Below, in pieces: positions 8,937 to 62,538 of a stretch of DNA of 64,000 nt. Position numbers and translations under genes: made by a program. The notes beneath the pieces are model-generated. The model did not search any database. It was not told the origin of the DNA and was given only the letters and a program-made list of their open reading frames with translations. Numbering within the stretch: position 1 is the first letter of the stretch; each line of letters opens with the position of its first letter. The stretch is from Spirosoma fluviale (GTDB lineage Bacteria; Bacteroidota; Bacteroidia; Cytophagales; Spirosomataceae). The stretch spans positions 62,001-126,000 of the forward strand of contig NZ_OCNH01000007.1 of the NCBI RefSeq assembly GCF_900230225.1, given 5' to 3'.

Positions 8937-9004
8937 GTGTAGTAAGTGAAATGAGTGGAATAGGTAAACAGGTTCAACTATTCCACTCATTTCACTTACT
9001 ACAC
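8937..9004. repeat. Perfect 27-bp inverted repeat, 68-bp element
   Basis: Arms 8937-8963 and 8978-9004 are perfectly complementary over 27 bp with a 14-nt loop. The element fills almost the whole gap between the deacetylase gene and folA. No T-run follows, so it is not a classical terminator. Elements of identical 68-bp span with unrelated arms occur at 14036-14103 and 49744-49811. Confidence 0.9.
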
Positions 9005-9017
9005 CAAATCACCAACT

Positions 9018-9515
9018 ATGAAAATCAGTCTAATCTCTGCGGTTGCACAAAATGGTGTTATCGGTCGCGATAACGATATGGTCTGGCATTTACCCGACGA
9101 CTACGCGTTTTTTAAACGCAAAACCAGCCATCACCCCATCATCATGGGTCGTAAGTCGCTGGATGCGCTCGGGAAACCGTTGCCCAACCGAACCAACATC
9201 GTTATTACCCGCAACCCCGACTTCACCGCAGCGGGCACAATTGTGGTGCACACCCTCGACGATGCCATTGCAGAAGCTAAAAAAGCGGATGGTGCCACCG
9301 ACGAGATATTCGTCATTGGCGGGGCTGAAATTTATAAAATGGCGCTACCCATTGCCACAACGCTTTACCTGACCGAGATCCATCAGGCTTACGAGGGTGA
9401 CGCCTACTTCCCGACATTCGACAAAAGCGAGTGGATCGAAGTTAGCCGACACCCACACCCCATCGATGAGCGCCATGCCGCTGCCTTTGATTTCGTGGAG
9501 TACGAAAGGCGCTAG
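9018..9515 (+). CDS. folA: Dihydrofolate reductase
   Basis: DHFR reduces dihydrofolate to tetrahydrofolate with NADPH in the cytoplasm. At 165 aa it has the usual length, and it starts MKISLISAVAQNGVIGRDNDMVWHLPDD-type, with the catalytic acidic residue in WHLPDD. The NADPH-binding motifs IIMGRKSLDALGKPLPNR and FVIGGAEIYKMAL are clear. It starts 13 bp after a perfect 27-bp hairpin. Its stop codon lies inside a small hairpin (9509-9527) that begins the cluster shared with the convergent hydrolase gene. Confidence 0.96.
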   Translation: MKISLISAVAQNGVIGRDNDMVWHLPDDYAFFKRKTSHHPIIMGRKSLDALGKPLPNRTNIVITRNPDFTAAGTIVVHTLDDAIAEAKKADGATDEIFVIGGAEIYKMALPIATTLYLTEIHQAYEGDAYFPTFDKSEWIEVSRHPHPIDERHAAAFDFVEYERR

Positions 9516-9641
9516 AATTGCTAGCGCGGACTACCGGTAGCTGGCGCGAGTATTTACTCGTGCCTTTCCATAAAGTCAGTATTCACTGACGCAAGCGAAT
9601 GCTTGCTTAAAGCGAAGGCACGAGTAAATACTCGCGCCAGC
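9509..9641. repeat. Multi-hairpin element between folA and the convergent hydrolase gene
   Basis: The outer arms 9540-9566 and 9615-9641 are perfectly complementary over 27 bp. Each arm is itself a near-palindrome (CGAGTA facing TACTCG). Between them are two further hairpins with 6-bp stems, GTCAGT-ATTC-ACTGAC (9575-9590) and GCAAGC-GAAT-GCTTGC (9591-9606), whose loops ATTC and GAAT are complementary to each other. Just upstream are GCGCTAG-AATTG-CTAGCGC (9509-9527) and the 10-bp palindrome CTACCGGTAG (9531-9540). It probably also acts as a bidirectional transcription barrier. Confidence 0.9.
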
Positions 9642-9644
9642 AAC

Positions 9645-10412
9645 CTACGCGCAGACGGCGTAGACGGGGGTTTCTTCGAAACGGGAAGCTACGATTACCT
9701 CCGTTGTATCCCGGTGCAGGGTGAATAAGTCCTTTGTGAGTTGGGGGCAGTTATTGTCTTTGGACAGGTGCGACAACAGCACGTGGCTCATAAAGGCCGG
9801 TTTATGCGTTTTAAACAGGTCCAGCGCCTGCTGATTGGACAAATGCCCTTTACCACCCCGGATTCTGTTCTTCAGAAAATACGGATACCGACCTCTCTCC
9901 AGCATTTCCTCATCGTAATTCGCTTCCAGGAAAGCAGCGTGGCACTGCTTAAAGTGATGAATCAGGTGTTCGCAAGGGGCACCTATATCGGTGAACACCC
10001 CCACTTTTGTATCCCGGCCCGCGATCAGAAAACTGTGCGGGTCCGAGGCATCGTGGTGCTTGGGAAAGGCCGTAATGCACAATTCGCCAATCCACACCGG
10101 CTCGTAACCTCGTAGTGGACGAAGTGGGAAACCAGTCTGCGGCAAGCCGGAATTATTGAGCGTTCCGGGCGTGATAAAAACGGGAATCTGGTGTTTTTTG
10201 GCCAGTTGGGGAATGCCCCGGATGTGGTCGCTGTGTTCGTGAGATACAAAGATGGCTTTAACGGTTTGCAATGACAAACCAAGCCGCTCCATTCGCCGTT
10301 CGGTTTCCCGACACGAGATACCGGCGTCGATCAGGACAGCTTCCCGTTCATTGCCAACGTAATAACAATTCCCGTTGCTGCCCGAATTCAATGAGGTAAT
10401 GAACAATTGCAT
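9645..10412 (-). CDS. Metallo-beta-lactamase-fold hydrolase (YycJ/WalJ-like)
   Basis: This 256-aa cytoplasmic protein starts at the ATG at 10412 (MQLFITSLNSGSNGNCYYVG). The longer frame from 10472 adds 20 unlike residues. The HxHxDH zinc motif is seen as SHEHSDHIRG, and further metal ligands fall in FPKHHDASDPHSF, FTDIGAPCEHL and SHVLLSHLSKDN. The SLxSGSxGN start and overall length match the YycJ group, proposed exonuclease-type enzymes, but the substrate is not established. It converges on folA across a hairpin cluster. Its start lies 68 bp from the divergent ABC transporter gene. Confidence 0.85.
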   Translation of the reverse strand: MQLFITSLNSGSNGNCYYVGNEREAVLIDAGISCRETERRMERLGLSLQTVKAIFVSHEHSDHIRGIPQLAKKHQIPVFITPGTLNNSGLPQTGFPLRPLRGYEPVWIGELCITAFPKHHDASDPHSFLIAGRDTKVGVFTDIGAPCEHLIHHFKQCHAAFLEANYDEEMLERGRYPYFLKNRIRGGKGHLSNQQALDLFKTHKPAFMSHVLLSHLSKDNNCPQLTKDLFTLHRDTTEVIVASRFEETPVYAVCA

Positions 10413-12979: not shown

Positions 12980-12983
12980 ATTA

Positions 12984-13049
12984 TGTACCAAACAGCTTCT
13001 AGCTGTTTGTATAGCCTTCACGTCAAACAGCCAGAGGCTGTTTGGTACA
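12984..13049. repeat. Two mini-hairpins inside a 13-bp inverted repeat
   Basis: The outer arms 12984-12996 and 13037-13049 pair over 13 bp. Each end forms its own hairpin, AAACAGCT-TCT-AGCTGTTT (12990-13008) and AAACAGCC-AGA-GGCTGTTT (13025-13043). The two stems differ at one compensated base pair, and the triloops are reverse complements. It lies between permease and binding-protein genes and could adjust their relative expression. Confidence 0.85.
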
Positions 13050-14027: not shown

Positions 14028-14120
14028 TAGGAACGCGGATGAAACAGATGGAACGGATAAAAACTGATTTCATGATTTTTATCCGTTCCATCTGTTTCAT
14101 CCGTTCCATCCGTGTTCCTA
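14028..14120. repeat. 28-bp perfect inverted repeat with extended arms
   Basis: Arms 14036-14063 and 14076-14103 are perfectly complementary over 28 bp with a 12-nt loop (68 bp in total). Outside them the left flank TAGGAACG pairs with TGTTCCTA (14113-14120, one wobble) only after skipping a 9-nt tandem duplication of TTCCATCCG in the right arm. It separates the binding-protein gene from the DUF1549 gene and may partly terminate transcription. Confidence 0.88.
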
Positions 14121-14143: not shown

Positions 14144-17100
14144 ATGGTGATATATCAACGCCTACGTCTTCTTATTGGAATCGGCTGTTTCAGTCTGGCC
14201 ATAAGCTTGCAAAGTTGTGGCGTCGACAAACCGGCGGAGATTGCTCAACTGGACGATAAGCTTCCCGAAACGATCGATTACAATCTACACGTGAAGCCCA
14301 TCTTGTCCGACAAGTGTTTCTTCTGCCATGGGCCGGACAAAAATAGCCAGAAAGCCGGACTGGAATTAGCCACGCCGGAAGGCGCTATGGCCGCCCTCAA
14401 AAAAGCGAAGGGTAAACACGCCATTGTTCCCGGTGACCTGGCCAATAGTGAAGTCTACCACCGGATTTTGAGCACCGACGACCATGAGATGATGCCGCCG
14501 AAAGCCTCAAATCGTTCGCTGTCGGTTTACGAGAAGGCCGTTCTGATCAAATGGATTGAGCAGGGCGCCGAATACAAACCGCACTGGGCGCTCATTAAAC
14601 CGGATAAGTCGGTCTTGCCAGCCGTAAAAAATACCATTTGGCCCAAAAATCCAATCGACTACTTTACTCTGAGCAAGCTGGAAGAAAAAGGCCTCAAACC
14701 ATCGCCCGAAGCTGACAAGGAAACGCTCCTCCGCCGGGTAACCCTCGACCTCACCGGTCTACCCCCTACCCTGGCCGAAACCGACGCGTTTCTGGCCGAC
14801 ACCTCGCCCGATGCCTACGAAAAAGTAGTTAACCGCTTACTGAAATCACCGCATTACGGCGAAAAGATGGCGGTCGACTGGCTGGATTTATCCCGCTATG
14901 CCGATACACACGGCTATACCGTTGACCGGTACCGGCCGATGTGGCCCTGGCGCGATTGGGTCATTCAGGCGTTTAACCGCAACCGGCCATTCAGCCAGTT
15001 CATCACCTGGCAACTGGCGGGCGATCTGCTGCCTAACCCAACCCCCGAACAGCGATTAGCGACGGCCTTCAACCGAAACCATTCGCAGAATATGGAGGGA
15101 GGCATTATCAACGAGGAGTTCCGGGTGGAGTACGTTGCCGACCGGACCAACACGCTGGGCACAGCCCTGATGGGCATGACCGTCGAGTGCGCCCGCTGCC
15201 ACGACCATAAGTTCGACCCCATCTCGCAGAAAGACTATTACAGTTTGTTCGCTTTTTTCAACAACGTGGACGAAGCCGGGCAGATTTCGTGGGACGATGC
15301 CATGCCGGTGCCCACGATGCTGCTCACCCAGCCCAAAGAAGATAGCCTGCTGACTTTCATCAACACGAAGATCCGAAAGGCAGAAACAGATTTGAAGCAA
15401 ACCGTACAGACCGAGCAAAAAGCATTTGAGGCTTGGCAATCGAAAACCAGTGCCGTTCCGTTCGATCCGCGCAAGGGCTTACAGGCGCACTTTACCTTCG
15501 ATAAACTGGTGAAGGGACGGTTCGTGAATGAGGTGAGCGTTAAAGACAGTGGCAAAGTACTCGACCCGGTACTTGTGCCGGGCAAACGGGGCAATGCCTT
15601 TCAATCCAACGGCGACGACATCCTGACGCTGGGACAGGCTGGTGTTTTCAGTCGGTCGCAGCCGTTTTCCATTGGCGTGTGGATCAACATTCCGAAGGGC
15701 GTTTCGAAAGCGGCCCTCGTTCACAAAGGCAACGGCGATATTCTGTATAATTTCCGGGGGTACTTCCTCAACCTCCGCGACGACAAAGCCGAACTGCTGA
15801 TGGCCCACACCTGGCCCTACAACAGCATTGTTAGGGTCAGCAGACAGGTGCTGCCCAAGGAAAAGTGGATTCAACTAACCATGACCTACGACGGCTCCAG
15901 CAAAGCGAGTGGCTTCCGTCTGTACGTCGACGGGCAGGAAACGGCACTCCTGACCGAGCGGGACAATCTCTACAAAGACATTTTATTCAACGGAAAACAG
16001 ACGGGTCTGATGGTGGGGGCAGATATGCGTGGGCCAGGTTTCAAGAAGGGACTGGTCGATGAACTGGTTGTCTATAACCGCACATTAAGCCCGCCCGAAG
16101 TTCAGGCGCTGGCCCAATCTGTGCAACAGGTAACGCCCATGAAAGGCGACCCGTTGAAACAGTATTATTTCAGTCATCTTTCGCCCGTTTACCAGCAACA
16201 GCAACAGGCTTTGCAGCAACTCCGGGCCGAGCGGAATAAACTGGTCGAGGCCATTCCGGAAATTATGGTGATGGACGAGATGAAAACGCCCCGTCCAACT
16301 TATCTTCTGAAACGGGGGGTGTACGACGCCAACGGCCCGCAGGTGAAGCCCGATGTTCCGGCCAGTGTGCTGCCTTTCTCGCCGGAGTTTCCCCGTAATC
16401 GGCTGGGGCTGGCCAAATGGCTCCTTCACCCCGATAACCCGCTGACGGCGCGGGTGGTAGTAAACCGGTACTGGCAAACGTATTTCGGCAACGCCATTCA
16501 GAAGTCGGCCAATAACTTCGGGAATCAGGGCGGGCTGCCTACGCACCCGGAACTGCTCGACTGGCTGGCCGTTACGTTCCGCGAAGGAGGCTGGAACATG
16601 AAAGCCATGCAGAAACTGATTGTAATGTCGGCCACCTACCGGCAATCGTCCTACGGCACCCGCGAGAGTCTGCAAAAAGACCCGGAAAACACCTGGCTGT
16701 CGCGCGGCCCCATTTCTCGCCTAACCGCCGAGATGATCCGCGACAACGCGCTGGCCGCCAGCGGCCTGTTAGTCAAACAACTGGGTGGCCCCAGTGTAAA
16801 ACCTTATCAGCCCGAAGGGCTCTGGGCGGTCAATAACACGACGTATGAGCAGGATAAAGGAGACAGCCTATACCGCCGAAGCCTGTACACGTTCTGGCGC
16901 CGGACCAACCCGCCCCCGTCCATGAACACCTTCGATGCTCCGTCGCGCAGCTATTGCGTGGTTCAGCGGCAGAAAACCAGCACACCCTTGCAGGCGCTGG
17001 TGCTGCTCAACGATCCACAGTTTGTTGAAGCCGCCAAAGTCGTTGCCGAACGGTCACTCGCTCAATACGCAACTATTTCGGATCGGCTAACGTACACGTT

Positions 17101-17326
17101 TAGGCTCCTGGCCAGCCGGAAGCCAGCCCCCAAAGAACTGGCTATTCTGACCCGATTGTATCAGCAGGAATACCAGTTGTTCACGAAAAATCCGGCCAAA
17201 ATGCAGGGATGGCTACAAGCAGGAGAGTACAAACTGAAAGCCGTGGCCGACAAGCCTGCCCTGGCCGCTGTTGCCGTTGTGGCCAGCACCGTCATGAATT
17301 CCGAAGCGTTCGTTACCAAGCATTAA
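14144..17326 (+). CDS. PSCyt1-DUF1549-LamG-DUF1553 lipoprotein
   Basis: This large 1060-aa protein has a planctomycete-type architecture. A lipoprotein signal ends at LQSC (Cys25). A cytochrome-like PSCyt1 domain follows with one haem motif, CFFCH (residues 58-62), and a distal MMPPK. DUF1549 starts near residue 165 (NPIDYFTLSKLEEKGL, LLRRVTLDLTGLPPT). A LamG/concanavalin-like insert spans about 445-650 (LQAHFTFDKL, QPFSIGVWINIP, LYVDGQETAL). DUF1553 occupies about 735-1000 (RNRLGLAKWLLHPDNPLTARVVVNRYW). These proteins regularly travel with DUF1501 partners, as here, and are thought to act in breakdown of complex polysaccharides, but no biochemical activity is established. Position after the sugar importer suggests a shared glycan substrate. 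Confidence 0.88.
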   Translation: MVIYQRLRLLIGIGCFSLAISLQSCGVDKPAEIAQLDDKLPETIDYNLHVKPILSDKCFFCHGPDKNSQKAGLELATPEGAMAALKKAKGKHAIVPGDLANSEVYHRILSTDDHEMMPPKASNRSLSVYEKAVLIKWIEQGAEYKPHWALIKPDKSVLPAVKNTIWPKNPIDYFTLSKLEEKGLKPSPEADKETLLRRVTLDLTGLPPTLAETDAFLADTSPDAYEKVVNRLLKSPHYGEKMAVDWLDLSRYADTHGYTVDRYRPMWPWRDWVIQAFNRNRPFSQFITWQLAGDLLPNPTPEQRLATAFNRNHSQNMEGGIINEEFRVEYVADRTNTLGTALMGMTVECARCHDHKFDPISQKDYYSLFAFFNNVDEAGQISWDDAMPVPTMLLTQPKEDSLLTFINTKIRKAETDLKQTVQTEQKAFEAWQSKTSAVPFDPRKGLQAHFTFDKLVKGRFVNEVSVKDSGKVLDPVLVPGKRGNAFQSNGDDILTLGQAGVFSRSQPFSIGVWINIPKGVSKAALVHKGNGDILYNFRGYFLNLRDDKAELLMAHTWPYNSIVRVSRQVLPKEKWIQLTMTYDGSSKASGFRLYVDGQETALLTERDNLYKDILFNGKQTGLMVGADMRGPGFKKGLVDELVVYNRTLSPPEVQALAQSVQQVTPMKGDPLKQYYFSHLSPVYQQQQQALQQLRAERNKLVEAIPEIMVMDEMKTPRPTYLLKRGVYDANGPQVKPDVPASVLPFSPEFPRNRLGLAKWLLHPDNPLTARVVVNRYWQTYFGNAIQKSANNFGNQGGLPTHPELLDWLAVTFREGGWNMKAMQKLIVMSATYRQSSYGTRESLQKDPENTWLSRGPISRLTAEMIRDNALAASGLLVKQLGGPSVKPYQPEGLWAVNNTTYEQDKGDSLYRRSLYTFWRRTNPPPSMNTFDAPSRSYCVVQRQKTSTPLQALVLLNDPQFVEAAKVVAERSLAQYATISDRLTYTFRLLASRKPAPKELAILTRLYQQEYQLFTKNPAKMQGWLQAGEYKLKAVADKPALAAVAVVASTVMNSEAFVTKH

Positions 17327-17327
17327 T

Positions 17328-17416
17328 GTAGCACCGAGCGTCGGCCCGGCGACCATCACGGTCGGGAGATTAACGTTTAAACATAATACACTCCCGACCG
17401 GGACGGTCGGCATTAC
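17328..17416. repeat. REP/BIME-like inverted element
   Basis: Two inverted units lie between the DUF1549 and DUF1501 genes. The left unit starts GTAG (17328) and holds CCGA-GCG-TCGG and GACC-ATCAC-GGTC. The right unit read on the minus strand begins GTAATG followed by CCGACCGTCCCGGTCGG. CGGTCGGGAG (17359-17368) pairs with 17391-17400. The 17-bp core recurs at 62463-62479. Confidence 0.75.
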
Positions 17417-17421
17417 AAGCC

Positions 17422-18870
17422 ATGAGTGAGAAACTAGCCCAGCATCTGGCCGATACATTTAACCGACGGTCTTTTCTAACCAAAGCCTCGCTGAGCTTAG
17501 GCTCGGTGGCTCTCGGGGCGTTGTTGCCTCAGAATCTTTTCTCCAACCCCACTGCCCAAGAGGCACTCACGGCCCCCAATCGCCCACCCAGGGCCAAACG
17601 GGTAGTGTATATGTGCCAGAGCGGGGGGCCATCGCAGCTGGAGTTATTTGACTATAAGCCGTATCTGGAAAAGATGCACGGCAAAGACCTGCCCGAATCG
17701 GTGCGAAAAGGGCAGCGGCTTACCAGCATGAGCGCCCAGCAGTCGGCGTTACCGCTGGTGAGTTCGCCCTATAAATTTGCCCAGCACGGCAAGAGCGGGG
17801 CGTGGCTTAGTGAACTCATGCCCTATACCGGCAAAGTGGCCGACGATCTCTGCTTCATCAAGTCGATGTACACGGAGCAGATTAACCACGACCCGGCCCT
17901 CACCTTTTTTCAGACGGGTAACCAACTGGCCGGACGCCCGAGTATTGGTGCCTGGGTGAGTTATGGTCTGGGAAGTGCCAATGAGAACCTGCCTGCGTTC
18001 ATTGTTCTGGTTTCGAACGATGCTCCCAAAGATCAGCCTTTGTACGCCCGGCTTTGGGGAAATGGTTTTTTACCGTCTAAACACCAGGGCGTGCAGTTCC
18101 GCTCCGGGGCCGATCCCGTACTTTATCTGAACAACCCCAACGGCTACAGCACCACCGACCGGCGCTATATGCTCGATGCGCTGAAAGACCTCAATCAGGT
18201 GCAGGAGGAAATGTACGGCGACCCGGAAGTGGCGAACCACATTGCTCAGTACGAGATGGCGTTCCGGATGCAAACGTCCGTCCCCGATGTAAACGACCTC
18301 TCTAACGAACCCGACTGGGTATTTGATCTCTACGGCCCGGAATCCCGAAACCCCGGCACGTTTGCCGCCAACTGCCTGATGGCCCGCCGACTGCTGGAAC
18401 GCGACGTCAAATTCGTTCAGCTTTATCACCAGGGCTGGGACCAGCACGGCAATTTACCGTCGGGGATAACCAAACAGTGCAAAGCCACGGACCAGGCCTC
18501 GGCGGCTCTGGTTCAGGACCTCAAACAGCGGGGCCTGCTGGACGATACGGTCGTCGTATGGGGGGGCGAATTTGGCCGGACGAATTACTCGCAGGGCAAA
18601 CTTACCAAAGATAATTACGGGCGCGACCATCACCCGCGCTGCTTTACGATGTGGATGGCGGGCGGTGGCATAAAGTCGGGAATTACCTACGGCGAAACGG
18701 ATGAGTTTGGCTATAACATCATCAAAAATCCCGTTCACGTGCATGATTTTCAGGCTACGCTGTTGCACCTGTTGGGCGTCGACCACGAAAAGCTCATCTA
18801 CGAATTTCAGGGACGCCGTTTCCGGCTGACGGATGTCGAGGGGAAACTGGTAAAGGGCATTCTGGCGTAA
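17422..18870 (+). CDS. DUF1501 protein (Tat-exported, sulfatase-like fold)
   Basis: The 482-aa protein carries a twin-arginine signal (NRRSFLTKASLSLGSVALGALL, split around residues 14-36), so it is exported folded. The body has DUF1501 features: VVYMCQSGGPSQLELFDYKP, HDPALTFFQTGN, GWDQHGNLPSG, VVWGGEFGRTNYSQG and GRDHHPRCFTMWMAGGG. The family belongs to the alkaline-phosphatase-like superfamily, but its reaction is unknown. It is the usual partner of the DUF1549/DUF1553 protein encoded just upstream across a 95-bp REP-like spacer. Both should meet outside the cytoplasm. Confidence 0.9.
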   Translation: MSEKLAQHLADTFNRRSFLTKASLSLGSVALGALLPQNLFSNPTAQEALTAPNRPPRAKRVVYMCQSGGPSQLELFDYKPYLEKMHGKDLPESVRKGQRLTSMSAQQSALPLVSSPYKFAQHGKSGAWLSELMPYTGKVADDLCFIKSMYTEQINHDPALTFFQTGNQLAGRPSIGAWVSYGLGSANENLPAFIVLVSNDAPKDQPLYARLWGNGFLPSKHQGVQFRSGADPVLYLNNPNGYSTTDRRYMLDALKDLNQVQEEMYGDPEVANHIAQYEMAFRMQTSVPDVNDLSNEPDWVFDLYGPESRNPGTFAANCLMARRLLERDVKFVQLYHQGWDQHGNLPSGITKQCKATDQASAALVQDLKQRGLLDDTVVVWGGEFGRTNYSQGKLTKDNYGRDHHPRCFTMWMAGGGIKSGITYGETDEFGYNIIKNPVHVHDFQATLLHLLGVDHEKLIYEFQGRRFRLTDVEGKLVKGILA

Positions 18871-18876: not shown

Positions 18877-18906
18877 GATGGCGCAAGGCTCTGGCCTTGT
18901 GCCATC
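18877..18906. repeat. 13-bp hairpin with distant inverted copy
   Basis: The stem 18877-18889 with 18894-18906 has one G-U pair and the loop TCTG. Bases 18877-18901 are repeated exactly, inverted, at 20127-20151, so the two copies flank the amj gene. There is no T-run after it. Confidence 0.8.
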
Positions 18907-18940: not shown

Positions 18941-19741
18941 ATGTCTGCACAAATCCTTTGGGTACTGCTGTTAACGTTTCTCATAAATCTAATCAGCACC
19001 CTCTCCTATTCGGTGCGGATTGTGGGAATTCGAACCCGAAAAATAGCGGTGTCTTTTGCCTTATTCAATGTGTTGGTACTGGTATCAAGGACCGCAAACG
19101 GCTTTCAGGCACCTATTTTAGCCAACATTGTTGAGAAAAACATTCGCCTTGGCCGTGCCAATCCCATCGACCAGTTTTACTGGGTTTTGTGGATGACATC
19201 GTTGTCTACGCTGGTGGGGGCCTTGCTGATTCCGTCTTTTCAGCGGCTATTTTCCTATGCGGTTGTCCACTTCAGCCGCCACAAATCAATGCCCGGACTA
19301 GTACTGGCCAGTGTATCGTCGCGGGGTTTCGATCTAATTCGTTCGAGCACAGTAGCGCCAAGTTTCCAGAATATGACCCGTTTAGTTGACAAAGGGCCGT
19401 TTCCGTGGCGGGTGTTTGTATTCAACGTTGTTGCGGTGGCAGTTTTGACGGTGGGGGTACTGGCGTCGTTGTATGCCGGTTACCTGAATCCGGGTTTACG
19501 GACAACATCGAGCAATTTATCGTCGGTCATTAATGGACTTGCTACGATCCTGATGTTTTTGTTCATCGACCCGTATTTGTCTATTCTGACCGATGAAGTG
19601 GCCGAGGGAAAGTACCAGGAGCCTGCCTTCCGAAACCAGGTTGTCATTCTGGTTATTGCCCGGCTACTGGGCACCTTACTGGCTCAGCTTGTCTTTTTAC
19701 CCGCTTCGCAATTGATTGTACTGATTGCGGAGCACATGTGA
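18941..19741 (+). CDS. amj: Lipid II flippase Amj
   Basis: The 266-aa polytopic membrane protein resembles Bacillus subtilis Amj (YdaH), the alternate flippase that moves lipid II across the cytoplasmic membrane. The match is clear in the N-terminal region LLTFLINLISTLSYSVRIVGIRTRKIAVSFALFNVLVLVSRTANGFQAP (quoted here only for residues 11-59 as a whole; key words SYSVRIVGIRTRK and SRTANGFQAP). About six to eight hydrophobic segments follow. It is monocistronic, flanked by hairpin elements, and converges with an ABC exporter. Whether MurJ is also encoded elsewhere cannot be seen here. Confidence 0.85.
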   Translation: MSAQILWVLLLTFLINLISTLSYSVRIVGIRTRKIAVSFALFNVLVLVSRTANGFQAPILANIVEKNIRLGRANPIDQFYWVLWMTSLSTLVGALLIPSFQRLFSYAVVHFSRHKSMPGLVLASVSSRGFDLIRSSTVAPSFQNMTRLVDKGPFPWRVFVFNVVAVAVLTVGVLASLYAGYLNPGLRTTSSNLSSVINGLATILMFLFIDPYLSILTDEVAEGKYQEPAFRNQVVILVIARLLGTLLAQLVFLPASQLIVLIAEHM

Positions 19742-19755: not shown

Positions 19756-20151
19756 TTTAACGTGAATAATAGAATACAGCCTTTGACATTCAGAGGTTTA
19801 AGTACCGTTGTCGCTACGCGGCCATTATTCACGTTAAAATTAGGTTTTGAGAAACCTCCGTGGTCAGGTTTGAGAACCTGACTTCACAAAAAAGGTTTAA
19901 CCACAGAGACGGTCCGCCGTTGCGGCACGGAGTTCACAGAGGTTGATTGGGGTAGAAAGTGCCTCTGACCGGAGTAAATGACCAGCCTGATACGCCGGTC
20001 AGAGACCGGATAACACCACAACATAGTCACAGACTATGCCCAACCACCCTGGGAGACCCGTCTTTACCCTCTGGCCGGTGTATTCAACTGTTATGATTTA
20101 CCGGCCAGAGGCCGGAGAATAATAGACACAAGGCCAGAGCCTTGCGCCATC
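19756..20151. repeat. Gene-free array of small hairpins between amj and the ABC exporter
   Basis: At least seven inverted repeats lie in 400 bp. They are a 15-bp pair 19756-19770/19824-19838; AGGTTT-TGAG-AAACCT (19842-19857); GTCAGGTT-TGAG-AACCTGAC (19863-19882); CCGGTC-AGA-GACCGG (19995-20009), whose left half recurs inverted at 19963-19972; CATAGTC-ACA-GACTATG (20022-20038); CCGGCC-AGA-GGCCGG (20101-20115), whose left half recurs inverted at 20069-20079; and CAAGGC-CAGA-GCCTTG (20129-20144). A CACAGAG-type repeat with a GC-rich insert lies at 19899-19945. No open frame is credible here. Confidence 0.85.
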
Positions 20152-20165
20152 CGCCATTATTAATC

Positions 20166-38033: not shown

Positions 38034-38159
38034 TTAGCCACAGAGCGGCACGGAGAGACACAGAGCTACGCAGAGAAAAATTGGTAGTTCTGCGGATACA
38101 CAATGAAAAATAAAAACTCTGTGTATCTCCGTGCATCTCTGCGAATCTCTGTGGCCTAA
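38034..38159. repeat. CACAGAG-type imperfect inverted repeat
   Basis: GCCACAGAG (38037-38045) pairs with 38147-38155, and an inner 18-bp pair 38048-38065/38117-38134 has one mismatch. The words CCACAGAG, CGGCACGGAG and CACAGAG occur in the same order as in the array at 19901-19942. It fills the gap between the hybrid kinase and the CheY-like gene. Confidence 0.75.
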
Positions 38160-40068: not shown

Positions 40069-41532
40069 ATGGCGTACGACTTTCAGGTGGGCATCATTGG
40101 TGCAGGATTCGCCGGGCTGGTAGCGGCTCTGCGCCTGAAAAAGCAGCATAAAGAATCTTTTGTGATCTTTGAGCGGGCCGCCGATGTTGGCGGCACCTGG
40201 CGGGATAACGTTTACCCGGGCTGCGCCTGTGATGTGGCCTCGCCCCTGTATTCGTTTGCCGACGAACCGAATCCCAACTGGGCTAATCTGTACTCCAGCC
40301 AGCCTGCCATTCTGGAGTACATGAAATTGGTGGTTGAGCGAAACGACCTTCGGAAACATATTCGATTCAATTCGGACATTGTGAAGGCTCAGTTCATGTC
40401 CGATAAAGGATGCTGGCAACTCACCAATGCACAGGGTACAACCACCACCGTCAACGTTTTACTGGCCGCACTCGGTCCGTTGAACCGCCCGAATATCCCC
40501 GACTTTCCGGGGCTTGCTTCGTTTCAGGGTCAGGTGATCCATTCGGCACGCTGGGATACAACCTGCGACCTGACGGGTAAACACGTAGCCGTTATTGGCA
40601 CCGGAGCCAGCGCCATTCAACTCGTGCCAGCCATTGCCCCAATGGTGAAGTCGCTAACGGTTTTTCAGCGCACTCCTGCCTGGATTAGCCATAGGCTGGA
40701 TCGAACCGTGTCGGAAGCTGCCCGTCAACGGTTCAGTCGGTTTCCGTTATTGATGAAGGTACAGCGTGAATCAATTTACTGGCTCAATGAGTTTGTAGGG
40801 ATGGGGTTCACTGGCAGCCAATGGCTTAATGGCCTTATGAAACACATTTCTCTGAAAAAGCTGGCCGATGAGGTAAAAGACCCTGAAACCCGAAAAAAAC
40901 TGACCCCAAACTATACCATTGGCTGCAAACGAATCCTGAAGTCCGACGACTTTTACCCCACCTTCAACCGCTCCAACGTTCATCTGGTAACGGACCCAAT
41001 CGACACGTTTGTACAAACAGGCATTAAAACCATCGATGGGCAGGAACACGCCCTCGATGTGGTTATTCTGGGTACGGGATTCAAGGTGGCCGACCTGAAT
41101 TTTTACACGGAGTTTATGGGTAAAGCGGGTACTCGTTTACAGGATGTCTGGAAGAAAACGGGTGGAGAAGCATTCAAGGGCGTTACAACGGCCAACTTCC
41201 CCAATCTGGCCTTCATTTTAGGCCCCAATACCGGATTGGGTCATAACTCCGTCATTCACATCATGGAATCGCAGATGAATTACATCATGCAGTACATCAA
41301 TCAGATTGAGCAGTTGGGCGGGGCCGGGTATCTGGATGTAAAAGAATCCGTTCAGCAGGACTATAACCAACGCCTGCAACAGCAGTTTAATGGCACCGTT
41401 TGGGCATCGGGCTGCCAGAGCTGGTACATGAATGAGGCCGGTAAAAATACAACCCTATATCCGCGCCTGAACACCCATTTCCGTCGGCTCACAAAGCGGT
41501 TCTCCATAGCCGATTACCAGGTTAACAGTTGA
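40069..41532 (+). CDS. FAD-dependent monooxygenase (Baeyer-Villiger type)
   Basis: This 487-aa flavoprotein has an N-terminal FAD site GIIGAGFAGLVAALRL, the GGTWRDNVYPG segment typical of this class, the fingerprint FQGQVIHSARWD (FxGxxxHxxxWD) at about residues 148-159, and a second dinucleotide site VAVIGTGASAIQLVP for NADPH. These define a class B monooxygenase that converts ketones to esters or lactones, or oxidises heteroatoms. The alpha/beta hydrolase right behind it could open the ester product, a pairing seen in ketone degradation. The two genes interrupt the signalling island, and nothing in them suggests a signalling role. Confidence 0.9.
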   Translation: MAYDFQVGIIGAGFAGLVAALRLKKQHKESFVIFERAADVGGTWRDNVYPGCACDVASPLYSFADEPNPNWANLYSSQPAILEYMKLVVERNDLRKHIRFNSDIVKAQFMSDKGCWQLTNAQGTTTTVNVLLAALGPLNRPNIPDFPGLASFQGQVIHSARWDTTCDLTGKHVAVIGTGASAIQLVPAIAPMVKSLTVFQRTPAWISHRLDRTVSEAARQRFSRFPLLMKVQRESIYWLNEFVGMGFTGSQWLNGLMKHISLKKLADEVKDPETRKKLTPNYTIGCKRILKSDDFYPTFNRSNVHLVTDPIDTFVQTGIKTIDGQEHALDVVILGTGFKVADLNFYTEFMGKAGTRLQDVWKKTGGEAFKGVTTANFPNLAFILGPNTGLGHNSVIHIMESQMNYIMQYINQIEQLGGAGYLDVKESVQQDYNQRLQQQFNGTVWASGCQSWYMNEAGKNTTLYPRLNTHFRRLTKRFSIADYQVNS

Positions 41533-41546
41533 AAAATCAACATCGT

Positions 41547-42224
41547 ATGCGGCTTATTTTCATACCCGGCTTTGGGGAGGGTCCCACTATTTTCGAGCAT
41601 ATAGCTCCTTCACTTCCCGGCAATAAACTCTTTATCAATAATCTGGATTTGCTGGGCGTCGACTACTCCCCCACACGCACGGTTACACAATACGCCGAAC
41701 AACTGATTGAACACCACAACATAAACAGGCAGGATGTACTGATTGGTCATTCGATGGGGGGTTGGGTAGCTTATGCCATCAAACAGCTGACGGGCTGTGC
41801 CATTGTTCAGATTGCCTCCTGGACAGATCCCGAAAAAGTCCGGTCACCGGTCAAAGATCTGGTTGTTCTGGAGTGGCTGGTCCGAAAAAACCTGTATTTA
41901 AATGGCACCACCAAAAAATTGATCCTTTGGCTGGGTTACCGGGACAAACCCTCGGCTCAGGTCATGAACGACGTTTTTCAAAATCTGATCAATAGCCCCA
42001 AAGGTTACATTATGAATCAATTGGGAATTATCCTTAACCCGGCTAACCCACAAACCCCGGCGCAACCGGACCTGCGTATTCATGCCCGAAACGATTCAAT
42101 TGTTGGGTTCCCGGATCAACAAACTCAGTTCGTACCCGGTGATCATTTCAGCCTGGTTACCCATCCTGGGGACGTTTCGGCCTTGCTGAACGACTTTCTA
42201 AAAGCGGCTTACACAAACGAATAA
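41547..42224 (+). CDS. Alpha/beta hydrolase
   Basis: The 225-aa hydrolase starts at the ATG at 41547 (MRLIFIPGFGEGPTIF). A TTG at 41529 would overlap the preceding gene by 4 nt and add six residues, an equally possible translationally coupled start. The nucleophile elbow is VLIGHSMGGWVAYA, with a late Asp in HARNDSIVGF and His in GDHFSLVTHPG completing the triad. It probably hydrolyses an ester or lactone made by the monooxygenase upstream. A strong terminator lies 34 bp downstream. Confidence 0.83.
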   Translation: MRLIFIPGFGEGPTIFEHIAPSLPGNKLFINNLDLLGVDYSPTRTVTQYAEQLIEHHNINRQDVLIGHSMGGWVAYAIKQLTGCAIVQIASWTDPEKVRSPVKDLVVLEWLVRKNLYLNGTTKKLILWLGYRDKPSAQVMNDVFQNLINSPKGYIMNQLGIILNPANPQTPAQPDLRIHARNDSIVGFPDQQTQFVPGDHFSLVTHPGDVSALLNDFLKAAYTNE

Positions 42225-48511: not shown

Positions 48512-49738
48512 ATGCTACACTATTTACTCTTCTTGTGTCTGGGCATACTTGCTTACACGTATGCAGGATACGGAATCCTGATTACAGTGCTGGCTAAAAT
48601 CAGAAGTTTACTTAAACCTGCCCGTTCAGTTATAGACGGGAATACGTATACCCCTCAGGTAACTCTACTCATAAGAGCTCACAATAAAATGACCTGTCTG
48701 CCGGCTAAACTTCAGAATTTGTATTCACTGAATTACCCCGCCGACAAACTTAGCTTTTTGTTCATGACAGAAGGGTCTACAGATGGGTCTACAGACTGGC
48801 TGGAATCATTACGTGATGATGGCGCTCAGCAGATTATGGTACAAGGCGGATCGAAGCAAGGGGGTAACATACCGTCTGTGAATCGCGCGATGAAGTACGT
48901 TACTTCACCGATCGTTATTTTCTGCGATGCCACCACCCAACTAAATAGTCTGGCTATCCGTAATCTGGCCCGTCACTTTCAGGATGAACGCATCGGGGCC
49001 GCTGTGGGGGAGAAACGCATTGGCAACTACCTCCACGAACCTGCCGGAGTCTGGGGAGAGCGTTTGTACGGGACATATGAGTCGTATTTAAACCGACAGG
49101 ATGCGCAGTTTCACACGGTCGTTGGCGCAACGAGTGGATTGTTGGCCATACGAACGGCCCTGTATGAACCCGTTCAGGCGGACACACTCCTGGACGATTT
49201 TTTAATCTCAATGAGAATAGCCGGAAAAGGGTACCGTGTTACCTACGAGCCCGATGCTTACACGCTGGAACGGCCTCCGTTCTCAATAGAAGAAGAGCAG
49301 AAACGGACAGTTAGCATAGCTACGGGTAGATTTCAGTCCGTAATTCGCTTACGTCACTTAGTTAACATAGCTTGCTACGGCTGGCTTTCCTTTCAATTCA
49401 TTTCGCGCCGAGTGCTATGCTGGGCAGTAGCCCCCTTTTGTTTACCAATCATCTGGCTCATCAATCTCGTACTGATTTTCCCGGGTAAGTCACAAACGTC
49501 TTTGCCTTTGTTTTGGGTTATATCTTTTGTAATTCAGTGTGTATTCTATGGTCTTGCGTATACAGGGTATCGGTTACAACAAAAAGGCCGCCGAATTAAA
49601 GCTTTACAGCTTCCGCTCTACATCACATTCATAAACGTTTGCGCTATTCAGGGCTTCGTTCATTTTTGGCGTGATAAAACATCCGGTATCTGGAAAAAGA
49701 CCCGTCGCTCCAACGATATAGAACTGCAAACGAGTTAA
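48512..49738 (+). CDS. Membrane-anchored family 2 glycosyltransferase, atypical motifs
   Basis: The 408-aa protein has an N-terminal membrane helix (about 4-24), a GT-A catalytic domain (about 50-280) and two or three C-terminal helices (about 300-365). GT2 landmarks are present but altered. The usual AYNE segment reads LLIRAHNKMTC, and the usual SDGSTDGT reads TEGSTDGST, Glu for Asp at the nucleotide-binding site. The metal-site region is IVIFCDATTQL, and the acceptor region keeps DDFLISMRIAGKGYRV, with QKRTVSIATGRFQS in place of QxxRW. It may make a processive or cell-surface glycan. It has no glycan gene neighbours. Confidence 0.8.
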   Translation: MLHYLLFLCLGILAYTYAGYGILITVLAKIRSLLKPARSVIDGNTYTPQVTLLIRAHNKMTCLPAKLQNLYSLNYPADKLSFLFMTEGSTDGSTDWLESLRDDGAQQIMVQGGSKQGGNIPSVNRAMKYVTSPIVIFCDATTQLNSLAIRNLARHFQDERIGAAVGEKRIGNYLHEPAGVWGERLYGTYESYLNRQDAQFHTVVGATSGLLAIRTALYEPVQADTLLDDFLISMRIAGKGYRVTYEPDAYTLERPPFSIEEEQKRTVSIATGRFQSVIRLRHLVNIACYGWLSFQFISRRVLCWAVAPFCLPIIWLINLVLIFPGKSQTSLPLFWVISFVIQCVFYGLAYTGYRLQQKGRRIKALQLPLYITFINVCAIQGFVHFWRDKTSGIWKKTRRSNDIELQTS

Positions 49739-49743: not shown

Positions 49744-49811
49744 GGTAATTAGTTATTAGTTAATGGTTATTGGATGAATTTCTGATAACCATTAACTAAT
49801 AACTAATCACC
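49744..49811. repeat. 27-bp inverted repeat filling a convergent gap, 68-bp element
   Basis: Arms 49744-49770 and 49785-49811 pair over 27 positions with one G-U and a 14-nt loop, the same geometry as 8937-9004. It starts 6 bp after one stop codon and ends in the stop of the convergent gene. It is a likely bidirectional terminator, though without G+C-rich stem. Confidence 0.88.
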
Positions 49812-52960: not shown

Positions 52961-53030
52961 GTGGTTATTTATTGGTTAGTAGTGATTGGTTATTGTACCA
53001 CAGTCAGCCTAATAACCAATAACTACTTAC
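52957..53030. repeat. Inverted repeat across both stop codons of a convergent pair
   Basis: Outer arms 52957-52969/53018-53030 (13 bp, one G-U) and inner arms 52985-52994/53011-53020 (10 bp, perfect, 16-nt loop) share three bases and may be alternative pairings. The outer arms include the stop codon of each gene. It contains GTAAGTG and TTGGTTAT words also found at 1402, 8942 and 49744. Confidence 0.75.
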
Positions 53031-54957
53031 CAGCCACCAGCCAGATCGCCAATTCTTTGGCAGCCTGAAAGTTCTGAAATTTAGCGGGTATCCGGCGACC
53101 GTCGACATACTCATTATAGAGCCAGGGATCACCCACGGCAAAAACCCTTCCTTTGCCAACCGTCGCTACCCCTATGATCACGTCACCACCATCGGTCACA
53201 GCGGCTTTGGCGGGTGCTTTTATGGCCAGTGGAGCTAATTCTTTAATATACACCGTCCGGGTGGTTGGGAAAATAGTCTGCCCACTGGCGGGAATTGAGA
53301 TTGTCCCCTGATCCCACTGTGTACCCTGTACCATATTCCGGTTTTTAGGCAGGAACTGCATCCCAAATCGGGCGGCCAGCTTATTGAAGTTTACGTGTTC
53401 ACAGTTCGATGTGTCGTTGGCCATGAGCACCAGCGTACCACCCGCCTGTACCCAATCGGCAATGGCGTTGATATCCGTTTCGCTAACGTAATTGGGTTTC
53501 GCCGTCTCTTTCGGCGTGTCGGGGTCTACGATTATGTAAACATCCGCTCCTTTCAACGATGCAGCCGTTGGCGCTCCCGAAATGGTAGCCGTTTTGGCCC
53601 CTAAATTTCGGAAAATGGAACCCCACCAGTAAAAGCCCGAGTGCATCTGGTCTTCCCAGGTGTAATGGAAAAGTTCCTGTTCACCGTTTACTCCTTTCCG
53701 AAACTCGTGGTTAAAGTAGTTATCGACAGCAACGGTTTTGCCTTTGGCGATGCCCCGCTCAGCGGCTATCTCCATTTCCACGCTGGCCATAATGAACGGG
53801 CCAACGCCTTTTAAGTCATCCTGACGCAGCGGCTCACTCAGGTAGTATTCATAACTTCCATCGCGGTACGGGTTCCCACCGAGCCCGCTCACCAGTACCG
53901 TTTTCTCTAAATGAATCTGGCCCTGTGCATCGGTGGTGATAAAGTTTTTCAGTATCCCGGCATACCCTTTCTGGGCCGGTACCGCTAGTGATGCAGGCAG
54001 ATACCCCATCCGAACACCCTTGGCCAGCGCATACACGAACATCGACGTTCCCGACGCTTCAATGTAATTTCCTTTGTCGCCAGGGCGATCAGTTACCTGA
54101 TACCAGCAGCCCGACTTAGCGTCCTGGTATTTCACAATGGCAGGCATTACCCGCTGTAAAATAGCGACCAGCTCACCCCGGCGCGGGTGCGACTGCGGCA
54201 CATAATCGAGCGCATCAACCAGCGCCATTACGTACCAGCCAATGGATCGACTCCAGAAGTTAGGCGATTTGCCCGTTTGTTTATTGGCCCATTTCTGCTC
54301 CCGGCTTTCGTCCCAGCCGTGATAGAGCAAGCCCGTTTTTTGGTCGCGGGCGTGGTTTTCCATCCACACAAACTGATTGACAATGTCGTCGAAGTTCTTT
54401 TCATCGCCGTACAGACGGGTATATTCGGCATAAAACGGCTCGGCCATGTACAGGCCATCGAGCCACATCTGATAAGGGTATCGCTTCTTATGCCAGAAAC
54501 CGCCTTCGTTCGTACGCGGCTGCTGGGCGAGTTGTTTACGCAGAACGTCGGCCGCTTTGCGGTATTTCGCATTGCCGGGCAACGATTGTTGGGCAAGCAG
54601 GAGCAAAGCCCGGCCGGGTGTCACAAAGTCAATATTGTAGTCATCCATTTTGTAGGTTCGGATGTTGCCATCGGCGTTTACATACCGATCCATATTTTTC
54701 TGGATGTATTGAAAATACCGATCGTCGGCCGTGCGGTACCAGACTTGTTCAACGGCCTCCAGCAGCACCCCCATTTCATACTCCCAACGCGCGTCTTTAC
54801 CTTCCTTGACGTAGGCAATGGAATCGGCGTTGTTGGTCATGATCGTGGCCACCATACGTTGTGACCAGGGTATATTGCTCCCGGATTTACTCGCCGTCGG
54901 CTGCGCCAGTGTACAATAGCTGACCGTCAGCAGACAACCTAAAAGACTCAACTTCAT
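53023..54957 (-). CDS. GH105-like unsaturated glycuronyl hydrolase with C-terminal GATase-like domain
   Basis: The 644-aa secreted protein has a signal peptide (MKLSLLGCLLTVSYCTLAQ). Residues about 30-400 form the (alpha/alpha)6 barrel of GH88/GH105 hydrolases, seen in MWLDGLYMAEPFYAEY (catalytic Asp167), HAWDES-like HGWDESREQKW, FWSRSIGWYVMALVDAL and LLASGTSMF-like EASGTSMFVYALAKG. These enzymes remove the terminal unsaturated uronic acid left by polysaccharide lyases, often from rhamnogalacturonan. Residues about 430-640 are a DUF4350/GATase-like beta-alpha domain (ADVYIIVDPDTPKET, WVQAGGTLVLMAND) of unknown role. It supplies substrate for the uronate genes at the left end, an inference. 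Confidence 0.87.
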   Translation of the reverse strand: MKLSLLGCLLTVSYCTLAQPTASKSGSNIPWSQRMVATIMTNNADSIAYVKEGKDARWEYEMGVLLEAVEQVWYRTADDRYFQYIQKNMDRYVNADGNIRTYKMDDYNIDFVTPGRALLLLAQQSLPGNAKYRKAADVLRKQLAQQPRTNEGGFWHKKRYPYQMWLDGLYMAEPFYAEYTRLYGDEKNFDDIVNQFVWMENHARDQKTGLLYHGWDESREQKWANKQTGKSPNFWSRSIGWYVMALVDALDYVPQSHPRRGELVAILQRVMPAIVKYQDAKSGCWYQVTDRPGDKGNYIEASGTSMFVYALAKGVRMGYLPASLAVPAQKGYAGILKNFITTDAQGQIHLEKTVLVSGLGGNPYRDGSYEYYLSEPLRQDDLKGVGPFIMASVEMEIAAERGIAKGKTVAVDNYFNHEFRKGVNGEQELFHYTWEDQMHSGFYWWGSIFRNLGAKTATISGAPTAASLKGADVYIIVDPDTPKETAKPNYVSETDINAIADWVQAGGTLVLMANDTSNCEHVNFNKLAARFGMQFLPKNRNMVQGTQWDQGTISIPASGQTIFPTTRTVYIKELAPLAIKAPAKAAVTDGGDVIIGVATVGKGRVFAVGDPWLYNEYVDGRRIPAKFQNFQAAKELAIWLVAGK

Positions 54958-62100: not shown

Positions 62101-62298
62101 GCGCTGGGTTCTGCTTCAAAAAGCCGGGTACCACTGGGTATCGTTATTGTGGGCGGGCTGATGTTCTCGCTCATTCTGACGCTGTATGTGGTGCCGGTTA
62201 TTTACACCTACATGTCTCGCCGGAAAGACGTTCAGCCAGAAGTTGATCCCAAGTCGGAAGACAAAGAAAAACCCAAAGAACTGGAAATACACGCTTAA
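59185..62298 (+). CDS. RND multidrug efflux pump (HAE1 type, AcrB-like)
   Basis: This 1037-aa inner-membrane proton-driven pump has its first helix at about 10-30 (VFAMVMSIVIVLFGIIGF), a large periplasmic loop, helices 2-6 with the proton-relay pair Asp401-Asp402 in LATGLVVDDGIVVTENIFKKIE, a second periplasmic loop and helices 7-12 (LALILVYLVLAAQFDSF, LVGLVTKNGILIVEFANEQR, lysine in the relay position). Length is typical. It forms a trimer and takes substrates from the periplasm or outer leaflet. Transcribed with the adaptor from the strong promoter at 57863. A terminator lies 28 bp after the stop. The substrate cannot be inferred. Confidence 0.95.
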   Translation: MSLPELSLNRPVFAMVMSIVIVLFGIIGFTFLGVREYPAIDPPVISVRTNYTGANPDIIESQITEPIEKSLNSIEGIRTISSNSALGASTITVEFNLDANLEQAANDVRDKVAQAQRQLPQDIDAPPVVTKADANSDPIIFMTVQSTTRNPTQLSDYAENVLQERLQTIPGVSQANIYGLKRQAMRLWIDPIKLSAYRLTSQDIQAALTAQNVELPSGKVYGNNTELTVKAVGRLTTEDDFNNLILRQTSNQIVRLKDVGYATIGAENEETISKQNGAVGVILALIPQPGANYVSIADEFYKRFDQLKKDLPEDIIVSIGVDRSTFIRRAIEEVGETLLISFVLVVLVIYFFFRDWLIAFRPLIDIPVSLIGAFFIMYIADFSINVLTLLGIVLATGLVVDDGIVVTENIFKKIEQGMDTKEAAREGSNEIFFAVIATSVTLAIVFLPIIFLEGFVGRLFREFGIVVAGAVLISAFVSLTLTPVLSVKLTSKNHGRSWFYRKTEPFFEWLDTSYRSSLNSFLKKRGWAFVMIGACLLLIFGLGSMLKSELAPLEDRSRTRLVITSPEGTSYEAQASLTDRVMQFVLDSIPETKLAFSVVAPGFSGAGAVNSSFVMENLVEPGNRERSQQEIVDFINKNLKKFNEARMFATQDQTIQVGRGGGLPVQFVIQNLNFEKLREKLPTFMDEVAKDPTFQNSDVDLKFNKPELNISIDREKATNLGISVQDVAQTLQLALSNRRLAYFLMNGKQYQVIGQVDRADRDAPVDLASFYVRSNQGQLIQLDNLVKFQEVSSPPQVYHYNRFKSATVSAGLAPGKTVGDGVEAMRAIAARTLDESFQTALSGPSRDYAESSSNTLFAFGLALILVYLVLAAQFDSFVDPLIIMITVPLALAGAVFSLWMFNQTLNIFSQIGIIMLVGLVTKNGILIVEFANEQRLTGKNKFEAAAESAALRLRPILMTTLVAAFGALPLALALGSASKSRVPLGIVIVGGLMFSLILTLYVVPVIYTYMSRRKDVQPEVDPKSEDKEKPKELEIHA

Positions 62299-62325
62299 TA
62301 ACCGGTCGTCTGAATTTTACGTACC

Positions 62326-62362
62326 GAAGGGCATCCGATTAGCCGGATGCCCTTCTTTTTTT
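62326..62362 (+). terminator. Intrinsic terminator of the efflux operon
   Basis: A perfect 12-bp stem GAAGGGCATCCG/CGGATGCCCTTC (62326-62337 with 62344-62355), with a 6-nt loop, is followed by seven T on the plus strand. Confidence 0.9.
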
Positions 62363-62441
62363 CCCTACCCTGCCTTACCAAACTTACGGTATCGAGCGTT
62401 GAATTAACAGCCTGGTTAAATTTTTTATCTTATCAAAAATG

Positions 62442-62538
62442 GTGGCTTATAAGCTGTAGTACCGACCGTCCCGGTCGGGTGAGAAGCGATTAGATACACG
62501 CCCAACCGGAACGGTCGGTACTACAGCTTATAAGCCAC
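62442..62538. repeat. 97-bp REP/BIME-like inverted element
   Basis: Arms 62442-62469 and 62511-62538 are perfectly complementary over 28 bp and extend to about 40 bp with three mismatched or wobble positions, leaving a loop of about 17 nt. Each arm carries GTAGTAC ahead of a hairpin core, CCGACCGTCCCGGTCGG on the left. The core is shared with 17392-17410 on the other strand. Confidence 0.85.

What the first reader, a model, noticed from the sequence alone, without database searches (positions are those of the whole stretch)
8937..62538. Intergenic hairpin elements whose stems vary while loops, words and geometry recur
At least ten gaps (near 6.06, 8.94, 9.51, 12.98, 14.03, 17.33, 18.88-20.15, 38.03, 49.74, 52.96 and 62.44 kb) hold long, often perfect inverted repeats. 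The arms are mostly unrelated in sequence, yet triloop AGA or TCT, tetraloop TGAG, and the words CAGAG, GTAAGTG, GACCGT and CACAGAG recur, and three elements span exactly 68 bp. Constant structure with covarying stems suggests selection on the folded form, or a hairpin-generating mechanism such as RAYT-type single-strand transposition or template switching, rather than ordinary terminators, because most lack a T-run. Which process acts is inference.
Basis: partly seen in the sequence, partly recalled or inferred. Interest (0 to 1): 0.75.

Follow-up and report, generated by a model that had tools for sequence, protein, structure and literature searches.

The report
Self-rewriting hairpins at Spirosoma gene ends
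Many genes in this bacterium end in a long, nearly perfect DNA hairpin that is rewritten between sister species, most likely because the copying enzyme switches template inside the hairpin; some of the hairpins are ordinary mobile repeats.

Summary
The inverted repeats are real and beyond chance: 181 in 864 kb of this Spirosoma genome, 1 in a random sequence of equal size. Most sit just behind stop codons (median 12 nt): 58 of 84 convergent gaps hold one, 6 of 99 divergent. (1) Elements at 17.3/62.4 and 12.98 kb belong to two REP families whose copies flank RAYT-type transposase genes. (2) Some are terminator-like. (3) Others have arms of 7-8-nt micro-repeats. Between sister species the site is often kept while the stem is replaced. 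Where the stem is kept the loop is often inverted: 11 of 27 orientable long stems, 3 of 24 short ones; one arm is sometimes copied onto the other; mismatches show no clear G·U bias. These are marks of polymerase template switching. Two genomes in which no Y1 or RAYT match was found have similar hairpin density and inversions, so RAYTs seem not to be needed. New here: micro-repeat arms are C-poor on the stop side (35 of 36) and have excess stop triplets.

The parts
   Evidence: G009, G027 and G015 also have a perfect hairpin here; the G009/G027 stem differs from the window's and from G015's; loop inverted between G009 and G027
6056..6114 (.). 19-bp arms, 21-nt loop, behind a minus-strand gene
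   Evidence: G009 and G027 have CATTATTCATT-type micro-repeats in this gap; only G027 forms a hairpin of score 13 or more
8937..9004 (+). micro-repeat palindrome 4 nt behind a stop codon; near arm (27 nt) without C
   Evidence: different micro-repeat hairpins at the same site in G027, G015, L057 and L072; none found in G009
9536..9645 (.). composite palindrome; inner 32 nt (9575-9606) inverted relative to G009
12984..13049 (.). GTACC REP-type inverted pair (tip TCT), of the family that flanks the L008 RAYT-like gene
   Evidence: loop aligns better inverted between G015 and G027 (score 13 against 6)
14036..14103 (+). micro-repeat palindrome (GGATGAAACAGATGG), perfect 28 bp
17327..17416 (.). BIME of GTAG REP (ACCGACCGTCCCGGTCGG family, left copy diverged)
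   Evidence: present in G009 and G015, absent in G027
18877..18906 (.). REP-like hairpin GATGGCGCAAGGCTCTGGCCTTGTGCCATC
   Evidence: resembles the outer arm of a larger nested palindrome in G009
19756..19838 (.). 15-bp arms TTTAACGTGAATAAT, 53-nt loop
19842..19882 (.). two TGAG-loop hairpins (AGGTTT-TGAG-AAACCT, CAGGTT-TGAG-AACCTG)
19950..20160 (.). cluster of AGA-tip hairpins (CCGGTCAGAGACCGG, CCGGCCAGAGGCCGG, AAGGCCAGAGCCTT); approximate ends
   Evidence: not in the G009 and G027 gaps (68 and 29 nt with margins)
38037..38155 (+). CACAGAG micro-repeat palindrome; approximate ends
   Evidence: gap of about 16 nt without hairpin in G009, strong hairpin in G015
49744..49811 (.). GTTATTAG micro-repeat palindrome between convergent genes
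52966..53032 (.). GGTTATT micro-repeat palindrome overlapping the end of the minus-strand gene
   Evidence: G009 has an unrelated perfect 25-bp stem at the same site, G027 a related one
62442..62538 (.). BIME of the same GTAG REP, with arms extended beyond the REP (GTGGCTTATAAGCT)
   Evidence: absent from G009

Best explanation
Gene ends in Spirosoma are often capped by long palindromes of mixed origin: intrinsic-terminator-like hairpins, REP/BIME copies spread by RAYT transposases, and palindromes with 7-8-nt micro-repeat arms. Once a quasi-palindrome exists, replication template switching inside it makes one arm a copy of the other, lengthens it and flips the loop, so stems are rewritten while staying nearly perfect (the sequence changes are shown by comparison; the enzymatic step is inferred). 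Palindromes are kept mainly behind stop codons, probably as two-way transcript-end signals (position shown; function inferred).
For: Excess over chance. Gap types: G000 58/84 convergent, 6/99 divergent; G009 36/63, 5/74; G027 25/56, 6/70; G004+G005 23/38, 9/47. Loop orientation in 79 matched hairpins of two sister pairs: stems >=14 bp 11 inverted, 16 same, 6 neither, 5 self-complementary loops, 8 of unequal length; stems <14 bp 3, 21, 5, 2, 2; non-orthologous loops of equal length match as reverse complement in 8 of 255; Fisher p 0.031 for stem length. Clear cases: 19-nt loop, 18 of 19 inverted against 3 of 19 direct; 32-nt loop, 30 of 32 against 17 of 32; exact 32-nt inversion in the window element at 9.54 kb. 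One-arm cases: of 185 hairpin sightings in the sister pairs (arms >=14, each side taken in turn) 107 have both arms at >=80% in the sister gap, 58 neither, 20 only one; clearest A#17 (14 to 26 bp, with loop inversion), B#26, B#83. Paired changes 54 (14 of them in one doubtful hairpin) against 24 one-sided, 1127 unchanged. Mismatches in G000: 31 G·T, 25 A·C, 9 other in 2563 pairs. REP core in 8 of 36 genomes; all 5 genomes with a >=70% RAYT have >=25 copies. G004 and G005: no Y1_Tnp match and no L007-RAYT match at 1e-20, yet 19.0 and 16.5 hairpins per 100 kb and 6 inverted loops among 27 matched. Template switching as a cause of arm homogenisation and spacer inversion: PMC8604942 and PMC8794818 (passages read).
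Against: Only two species pairs were compared for loops, and direction of change was not polarised by an outgroup. The hairpin finder requires good pairing, which hides one-sided changes. Of 79 matched hairpins 37 keep loop orientation and 14 are inverted. In G004+G005 divergent gaps (9/47) hold hairpins about as often as codirectional ones (33/156), which weakens the transcript-end reading there. Template switching alone does not explain why the same micro-repeat words stand at unrelated genes, nor why some gaps swap to an unrelated perfect stem. No transcript ends were mapped.
Confidence: 0.75

Rival explanations
1. All are REP-like elements moved by RAYT/TnpA single-strand transposition; stems differ because each RAYT has its own REP.
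For: Two RAYT-like genes (L007, L008; NCBIfam REP_Tyr_transpos 76 and 71.7 bits, cut-off 80) are flanked on both sides by the REP families seen at 17.35/62.44 and 12.98 kb; the L007-type RAYT and its REP go together.
Against: G004 and G005 gave no Y1_Tnp or L007-RAYT match and no REP words in 200 kb each, but have similar hairpin density, micro-repeat palindromes and loop inversions. A diverged RAYT below both thresholds is not excluded.
Confidence: 0.12
2. Ordinary intrinsic terminators under selection for RNA pairing; arms covary by two-step compensatory mutation.
For: Position at gene 3' ends; 43 of 115 hairpins that are neither REP-like nor periodic have T>=4; enrichment of inverted repeats behind bacterial stop codons is general (PMC13155455, passages).
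Against: No clear G·U excess among mismatches (31 to 25; 13 to 9 one-sided changes); loop inversions and one-arm copying; arms of 20-50 bp exceed what a terminator needs (general knowledge).
Confidence: 0.16
3. Loops are inverted by homologous or site-specific recombination between the arms.
For: Inversion between inverted repeats is the usual product of recombination (general knowledge); arms are nearly identical.
Against: Loops of 3-6 nt are among the inverted ones, too short for looping of double-stranded DNA (general knowledge); the stems involved have different sequences.
Confidence: 0.06

Closest known systems
Template-switch mutations in hairpins (PMC8794818; PMC8604942; passages read)
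   Same: loop/spacer inversion, arm homogenisation, multiple paired changes, preference for long arms
   Different: described there in RNA genes (rRNA among them) and yeast coding genes; here at gene-end hairpins of one bacterial genus, with 11 of 27 orientable long stems flipped between sister species
GTAG REP / BIME with RAYT (PMC3733652; passages read)
   Same: GTAG-tagged palindromes, inverted pairs, many copies, flanking the RAYT gene
   Different: the word Spirosoma is not in the main text of that paper; the second family here starts with GTACC
TAACTGA heptamer repeats (PMC4679880; abstract and section 12 read)
   Same: 7-nt units with stop triplets in gaps, found in some Bacteroidetes
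   Different: direct repeats, mostly before start codons in the main species; here two-armed palindromes behind stop codons with many different units
Intrinsic terminators
   Same: hairpin just behind the stop codon
   Different: longer, nearly perfect arms, mostly without T-run

Membership tests
REP/RAYT system (17.35 and 62.44 kb elements) | GTAG tag before a palindrome | tested here: met
REP/RAYT system (17.35 and 62.44 kb elements) | high copy number, often inverted pairs | tested here: met
REP/RAYT system (17.35 and 62.44 kb elements) | RAYT gene flanked by the same REP | tested here: met
   L007; same arrangement by coordinates in G009 and G003
REP/RAYT system (17.35 and 62.44 kb elements) | RAYT protein family | tested here: inconclusive
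   NCBIfam REP_Tyr_transpos 76 bits, cut-off 80; Y1_Tnp 28.7 bits, cut-off 23
REP/RAYT system (12.98 kb element) | RAYT gene flanked by the same REP | tested here: met
   L008 flanked by GTACC...ACAGC-TCT elements; the window copy differs in the stem; L008 protein 71.7 bits, cut-off 80
REP/RAYT system (micro-repeat palindromes) | a Y1 transposase in the genome | tested here: not met
   palindromes present in G004 and G005, where no match was found
Intrinsic terminator (micro-repeat palindromes) | T-run at the 3' side of the stem | tested here: not met
   0 of 15 with T>=4
Intrinsic terminator (remaining hairpins) | T-run at the 3' side of the stem | tested here: inconclusive
   43 of 115 with T>=4 in the distal arm plus 8 nt
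Intrinsic terminator (all) | RNA 3' end mapped there | not testable with these tools
   no transcript data
Template-switch hairpins | loop inversion between relatives | tested here: met
   14 of 79 matched hairpins; 8 of 255 in control pairs
Template-switch hairpins | copying of one arm onto the other | tested here: met
   20 of 185 sightings with only one arm in the sister, three clear cases; direction not polarised

The most novel reading that the evidence does not exclude
The micro-repeat palindromes are a distinct gene-end device: a C-poor (16 of 36 wholly C-free), 7-8-nt-periodic arm laid directly behind the stop codon offers stop triplets in all three frames to ribosomes and, paired with its G-poor copy, a two-way transcript-end hairpin that can hardly misfold within an arm; template switching and slippage build it repeatedly at the same gene ends, without any transposase.
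Probability: 0.25. Interest if true: 0.75.

Novelty: new variant of a known kind. Interest (0 to 1): 0.6.

Why it matters
It offers a natural system in which hairpin birth, arm copying and loop flipping can be counted between close relatives. Paired changes in stems are usually read as proof of selection on RNA structure; here they seem to arise at least partly from replication, so covariation alone could mislead. It may also bear on the raised substitution load in inverted-repeat spacers near terminators reported in PMC13155455 (passages); that link is my inference.

Tried and rejected
Fixed 68-bp geometry: dropped, 6 of 181. A single element family with constant loops: dropped, the loop words split into REP families and others. 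Rfam: no match in the window. Micro-repeats seeded by the gene's own stop codon: not supported in periodic arms (concordance p 0.136); in non-periodic arms it is above chance (p 0.0015), perhaps because arms overlap the stop. Literature: the six micro-repeat words gave 6 papers, by title none on intergenic repeats; Spirosoma with REP gave 1 paper, listing only; searches for template switching or loop inversion at terminators showed no listed title on bacterial gene-end hairpins rewritten that way (up to 12 rows of each listing; from these I read passages of PMC8794818, PMC8604942, PMC10434271 and PMC13155455); heptanucleotide palindromes, 10 rows, nothing fitting by title. A control for loop inversion outside Spirosoma was planned and not done; only hairpin density was compared. 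In one search the printed 'co' row also counts convergent hairpins; the right figure is 57+49=106. Dropped before counts: hairpins holding N; one hairpin without a gene on both sides; gap pairs with a gap above 3000 nt, both gaps very short, or unlike gene strands; hairpins in divergent gaps and in genes, and arms with autocorrelation 0.55-0.7; gene ends more than 30 nt from the hairpin.
Full report
What was checked. The window lies in a 7.8-Mb genome, G000, and is 50% G+C; its closest named relatives by dihydrofolate reductase are Spirosoma species. A scan of the window plus 800 kb of the same genome found 181 hairpins of score 13 or more with loops up to 60 nt, against 1 in 860 kb of order-3 Markov sequence. 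One of the 181 is a run of N; later counts exclude it.

Where they sit. With a simple codon-usage gene caller of my own, 179 hairpins could be placed: 65 in convergent gaps, 106 codirectional, 6 divergent, 2 inside genes. Gaps of at least 40 nt that hold a hairpin: G000 58/84 convergent, 100/324 codirectional, 6/99 divergent; G009 36/63, 65/263, 5/74; G027 25/56, 59/264, 6/70; G004+G005 23/38, 33/156, 9/47. In the last pair divergent gaps are not clearly poorer than codirectional ones. The median distance from the stop codon is 12 nt (171 hairpins). Hairpins per 100 kb: 20.8 in G000; 16.5 (G009), 14.6 (G027), 13.8 (G015), 19.0 (G004), 16.5 (G005). For comparison 2 hairpins in 50 kb of E. coli K-12, 1 in 45 kb of Paenibacillus, 2 in 32 kb of Pedobacter, 13 in 52 kb of named Spirosoma, 5 in 13 kb of Fibrisoma and Rudanella, 5 in 69 kb of other bacteria (small samples, around one gene except for K-12).

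REP part. The genome has 8 Y1_Tnp matches; a search with the L007 protein found a third RAYT-like gene besides L007 and L008 that is not among the eight. L007 and L008 are flanked on both sides by inverted pairs: GTAGTACCGACCGTCCCGGTCGG for L007 (the second pair incomplete at one end), GTACCCGACAGCATCTTGCTGTCGG for L008. Both proteins score just under the NCBIfam cut-off for REP-associated tyrosine transposase (76 and 71.7 against 80 bits). The exact core CCGACCGTCCCGGTCGG occurs 75 times in G000 and in 8 of 36 Spirosoma genomes (G000 75, G003 33, G009 79, G015 39, G022 25, G027 9, G032 35, G035 5); the reversed pattern in none. The L007-type RAYT at 70% identity or more is found in 5 of 36 (G000, G003, G009, G015, and G022 in part), all with 25 or more cores; of the other 31 three have cores. 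By hand, 5 of 5 falling among 8 of 36 has a chance of about 1.5e-4, kinship ignored. So 17.35 and 62.44 kb are REP/BIME elements and 12.98 kb belongs to the second REP family.

Turnover. The window's gaps were compared with G009, G027 and G015 (synteny, gaps). In the 52.96-kb gap G009 has an unrelated perfect 25-bp stem while G027 keeps a stem like the window's; at 8.94 kb the window, G027 and G015 have three different micro-repeat hairpins and G009 none; at 38.03 kb G009 has a gap of about 16 nt and no hairpin. At 9.54 kb the inner 32 nt of the window are the exact reverse complement of those in G009 relative to the flanks.

Template switching. Two sister pairs were used: G027/G009 (three blocks, 116+77+98 gap pairs, 95-96% mean protein identity; coding DNA 91.6% in one block) and G004/G005 (86 gap pairs, 97.5%). 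Of 151 hairpins of score 9 or more on the first-named side, 79 matched a similar stem, 35 faced another hairpin only, 37 none. Of the 79, 14 have inverted loops: stems of 14 bp or more 11 inverted, 16 same, 6 neither, 5 self-complementary, 8 unequal length; shorter stems 3, 21, 5, 2, 2. In the control of non-orthologous loops of equal length 8 of 255 match inverted and 6 of 255 directly. Short loops (3 nt) are weak evidence singly; the 12-, 13- and 19-nt cases and the two 32-nt cases are strong. Taking each side in turn, of 185 hairpins with arms of 14 nt or more in the sister pairs, 107 have both arms in the sister gap at 80% or more, 58 neither and 20 only one. Some of the 20 are borderline; in A#17, B#26 and B#83 one species has a longer perfect stem whose extra part matches only one arm of the sister. 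Stem positions: 1127 unchanged, 54 changed on both sides and still paired (14 from one hairpin whose homology is doubtful), 24 changed on one side (13 G·T, 9 A·C, 2 other), 2 unpaired in both. Within G000, 65 mismatches in 2563 pairs: 31 G·T, 25 A·C, 9 other. Selection for RNA pairing should tolerate G·U over A·C; the near equality points to a DNA-level process or to youth. Loop inversion and arm homogenisation are the known marks of template switching (PMC8794818, passages; PMC8604942, passages, which also reports spacer inversion only in arms longer than 9 bp).

RAYTs seem not to be needed. G004 and G005 have no Y1_Tnp match, no L007-RAYT match at 1e-20 and no REP words of the kinds searched in 200 kb each, but similar density, micro-repeat palindromes and 6 of the 14 inverted loops.

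Micro-repeat palindromes. In 12 blocks of six genomes, 36 non-divergent hairpins with arms of 18 nt or more have periodic arms (autocorrelation 0.7 or more; in G000 17 of 131 arms against 0.7% of shuffles). Periods are 7 (18), 8 (13), 9 (4), 10 (1). Read away from the stop codon, the near arm has positive GC skew in 35 of 36, 5% C overall, and 16 are wholly C-free; in 199 non-periodic arms the skew is positive in 111, negative in 69, zero in 19. I noticed the skew in G000 first, so that part is post hoc; of the 22 arms from the other five genomes 21 are positive, though a few are orthologous to each other or to G000 arms. Near arms hold 113 stop triplets in 844 positions against 73.6 +- 5.6 in composition shuffles, which do not keep the periodicity; non-periodic arms 241 against 235.9 +- 11.0. 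Gene ends with such an arm have stops in all three frames within 45 nt in 32 of 46 cases, non-periodic hairpin ends in 42 of 224, all genes in 15% of 1921. A purely mutational origin would not be expected to favour one strand relative to transcription, so selection or a transcription-linked origin is likely (inference). How the same words come to stand at unrelated genes is not explained.

Limits. Gene calls are approximate; thresholds were mine; the three G027/G009 blocks are one species pair; events are not polarised; no RNA data.

Noticed in passing
window 40069-42224: Flavin monooxygenase-like gene and an alpha/beta hydrolase gene with no tblastn match at 1e-20 in the syntenic stretches of G009, G027 and G015: likely a recent insertion.
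   Followed up: partly
window 14144-18870: PSCyt1/PSCyt2/PSD1 protein next to a DUF1501 protein, a pair well known from Planctomycetes (recalled).
   Followed up: no
window 18941-19741: Amj family (alternate to MurJ) gene, with no match in the syntenic stretch of G015.
   Followed up: no
window 48512-49738: Glycosyltransferase gene only 56-60% identical to its syntenic neighbours while the two flanking genes are 69-99% identical: fast-changing or replaced.
   Followed up: no
L001-L006: Five of the other six Y1 transposase genes have short hairpin words repeated nearby, seen by eye (e.g. GTCGCTAACGCGAC at L002, CATAGGGCGATGCCCCATG at L003).
   Followed up: partly
G000 864 kb sample: Several micro-repeat palindromes share an inner tip GGCTGACGC...GCGTCAGCC with different outer arms; the word occurs 22 times against 9 in an 800-kb Markov control.
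   Followed up: partly
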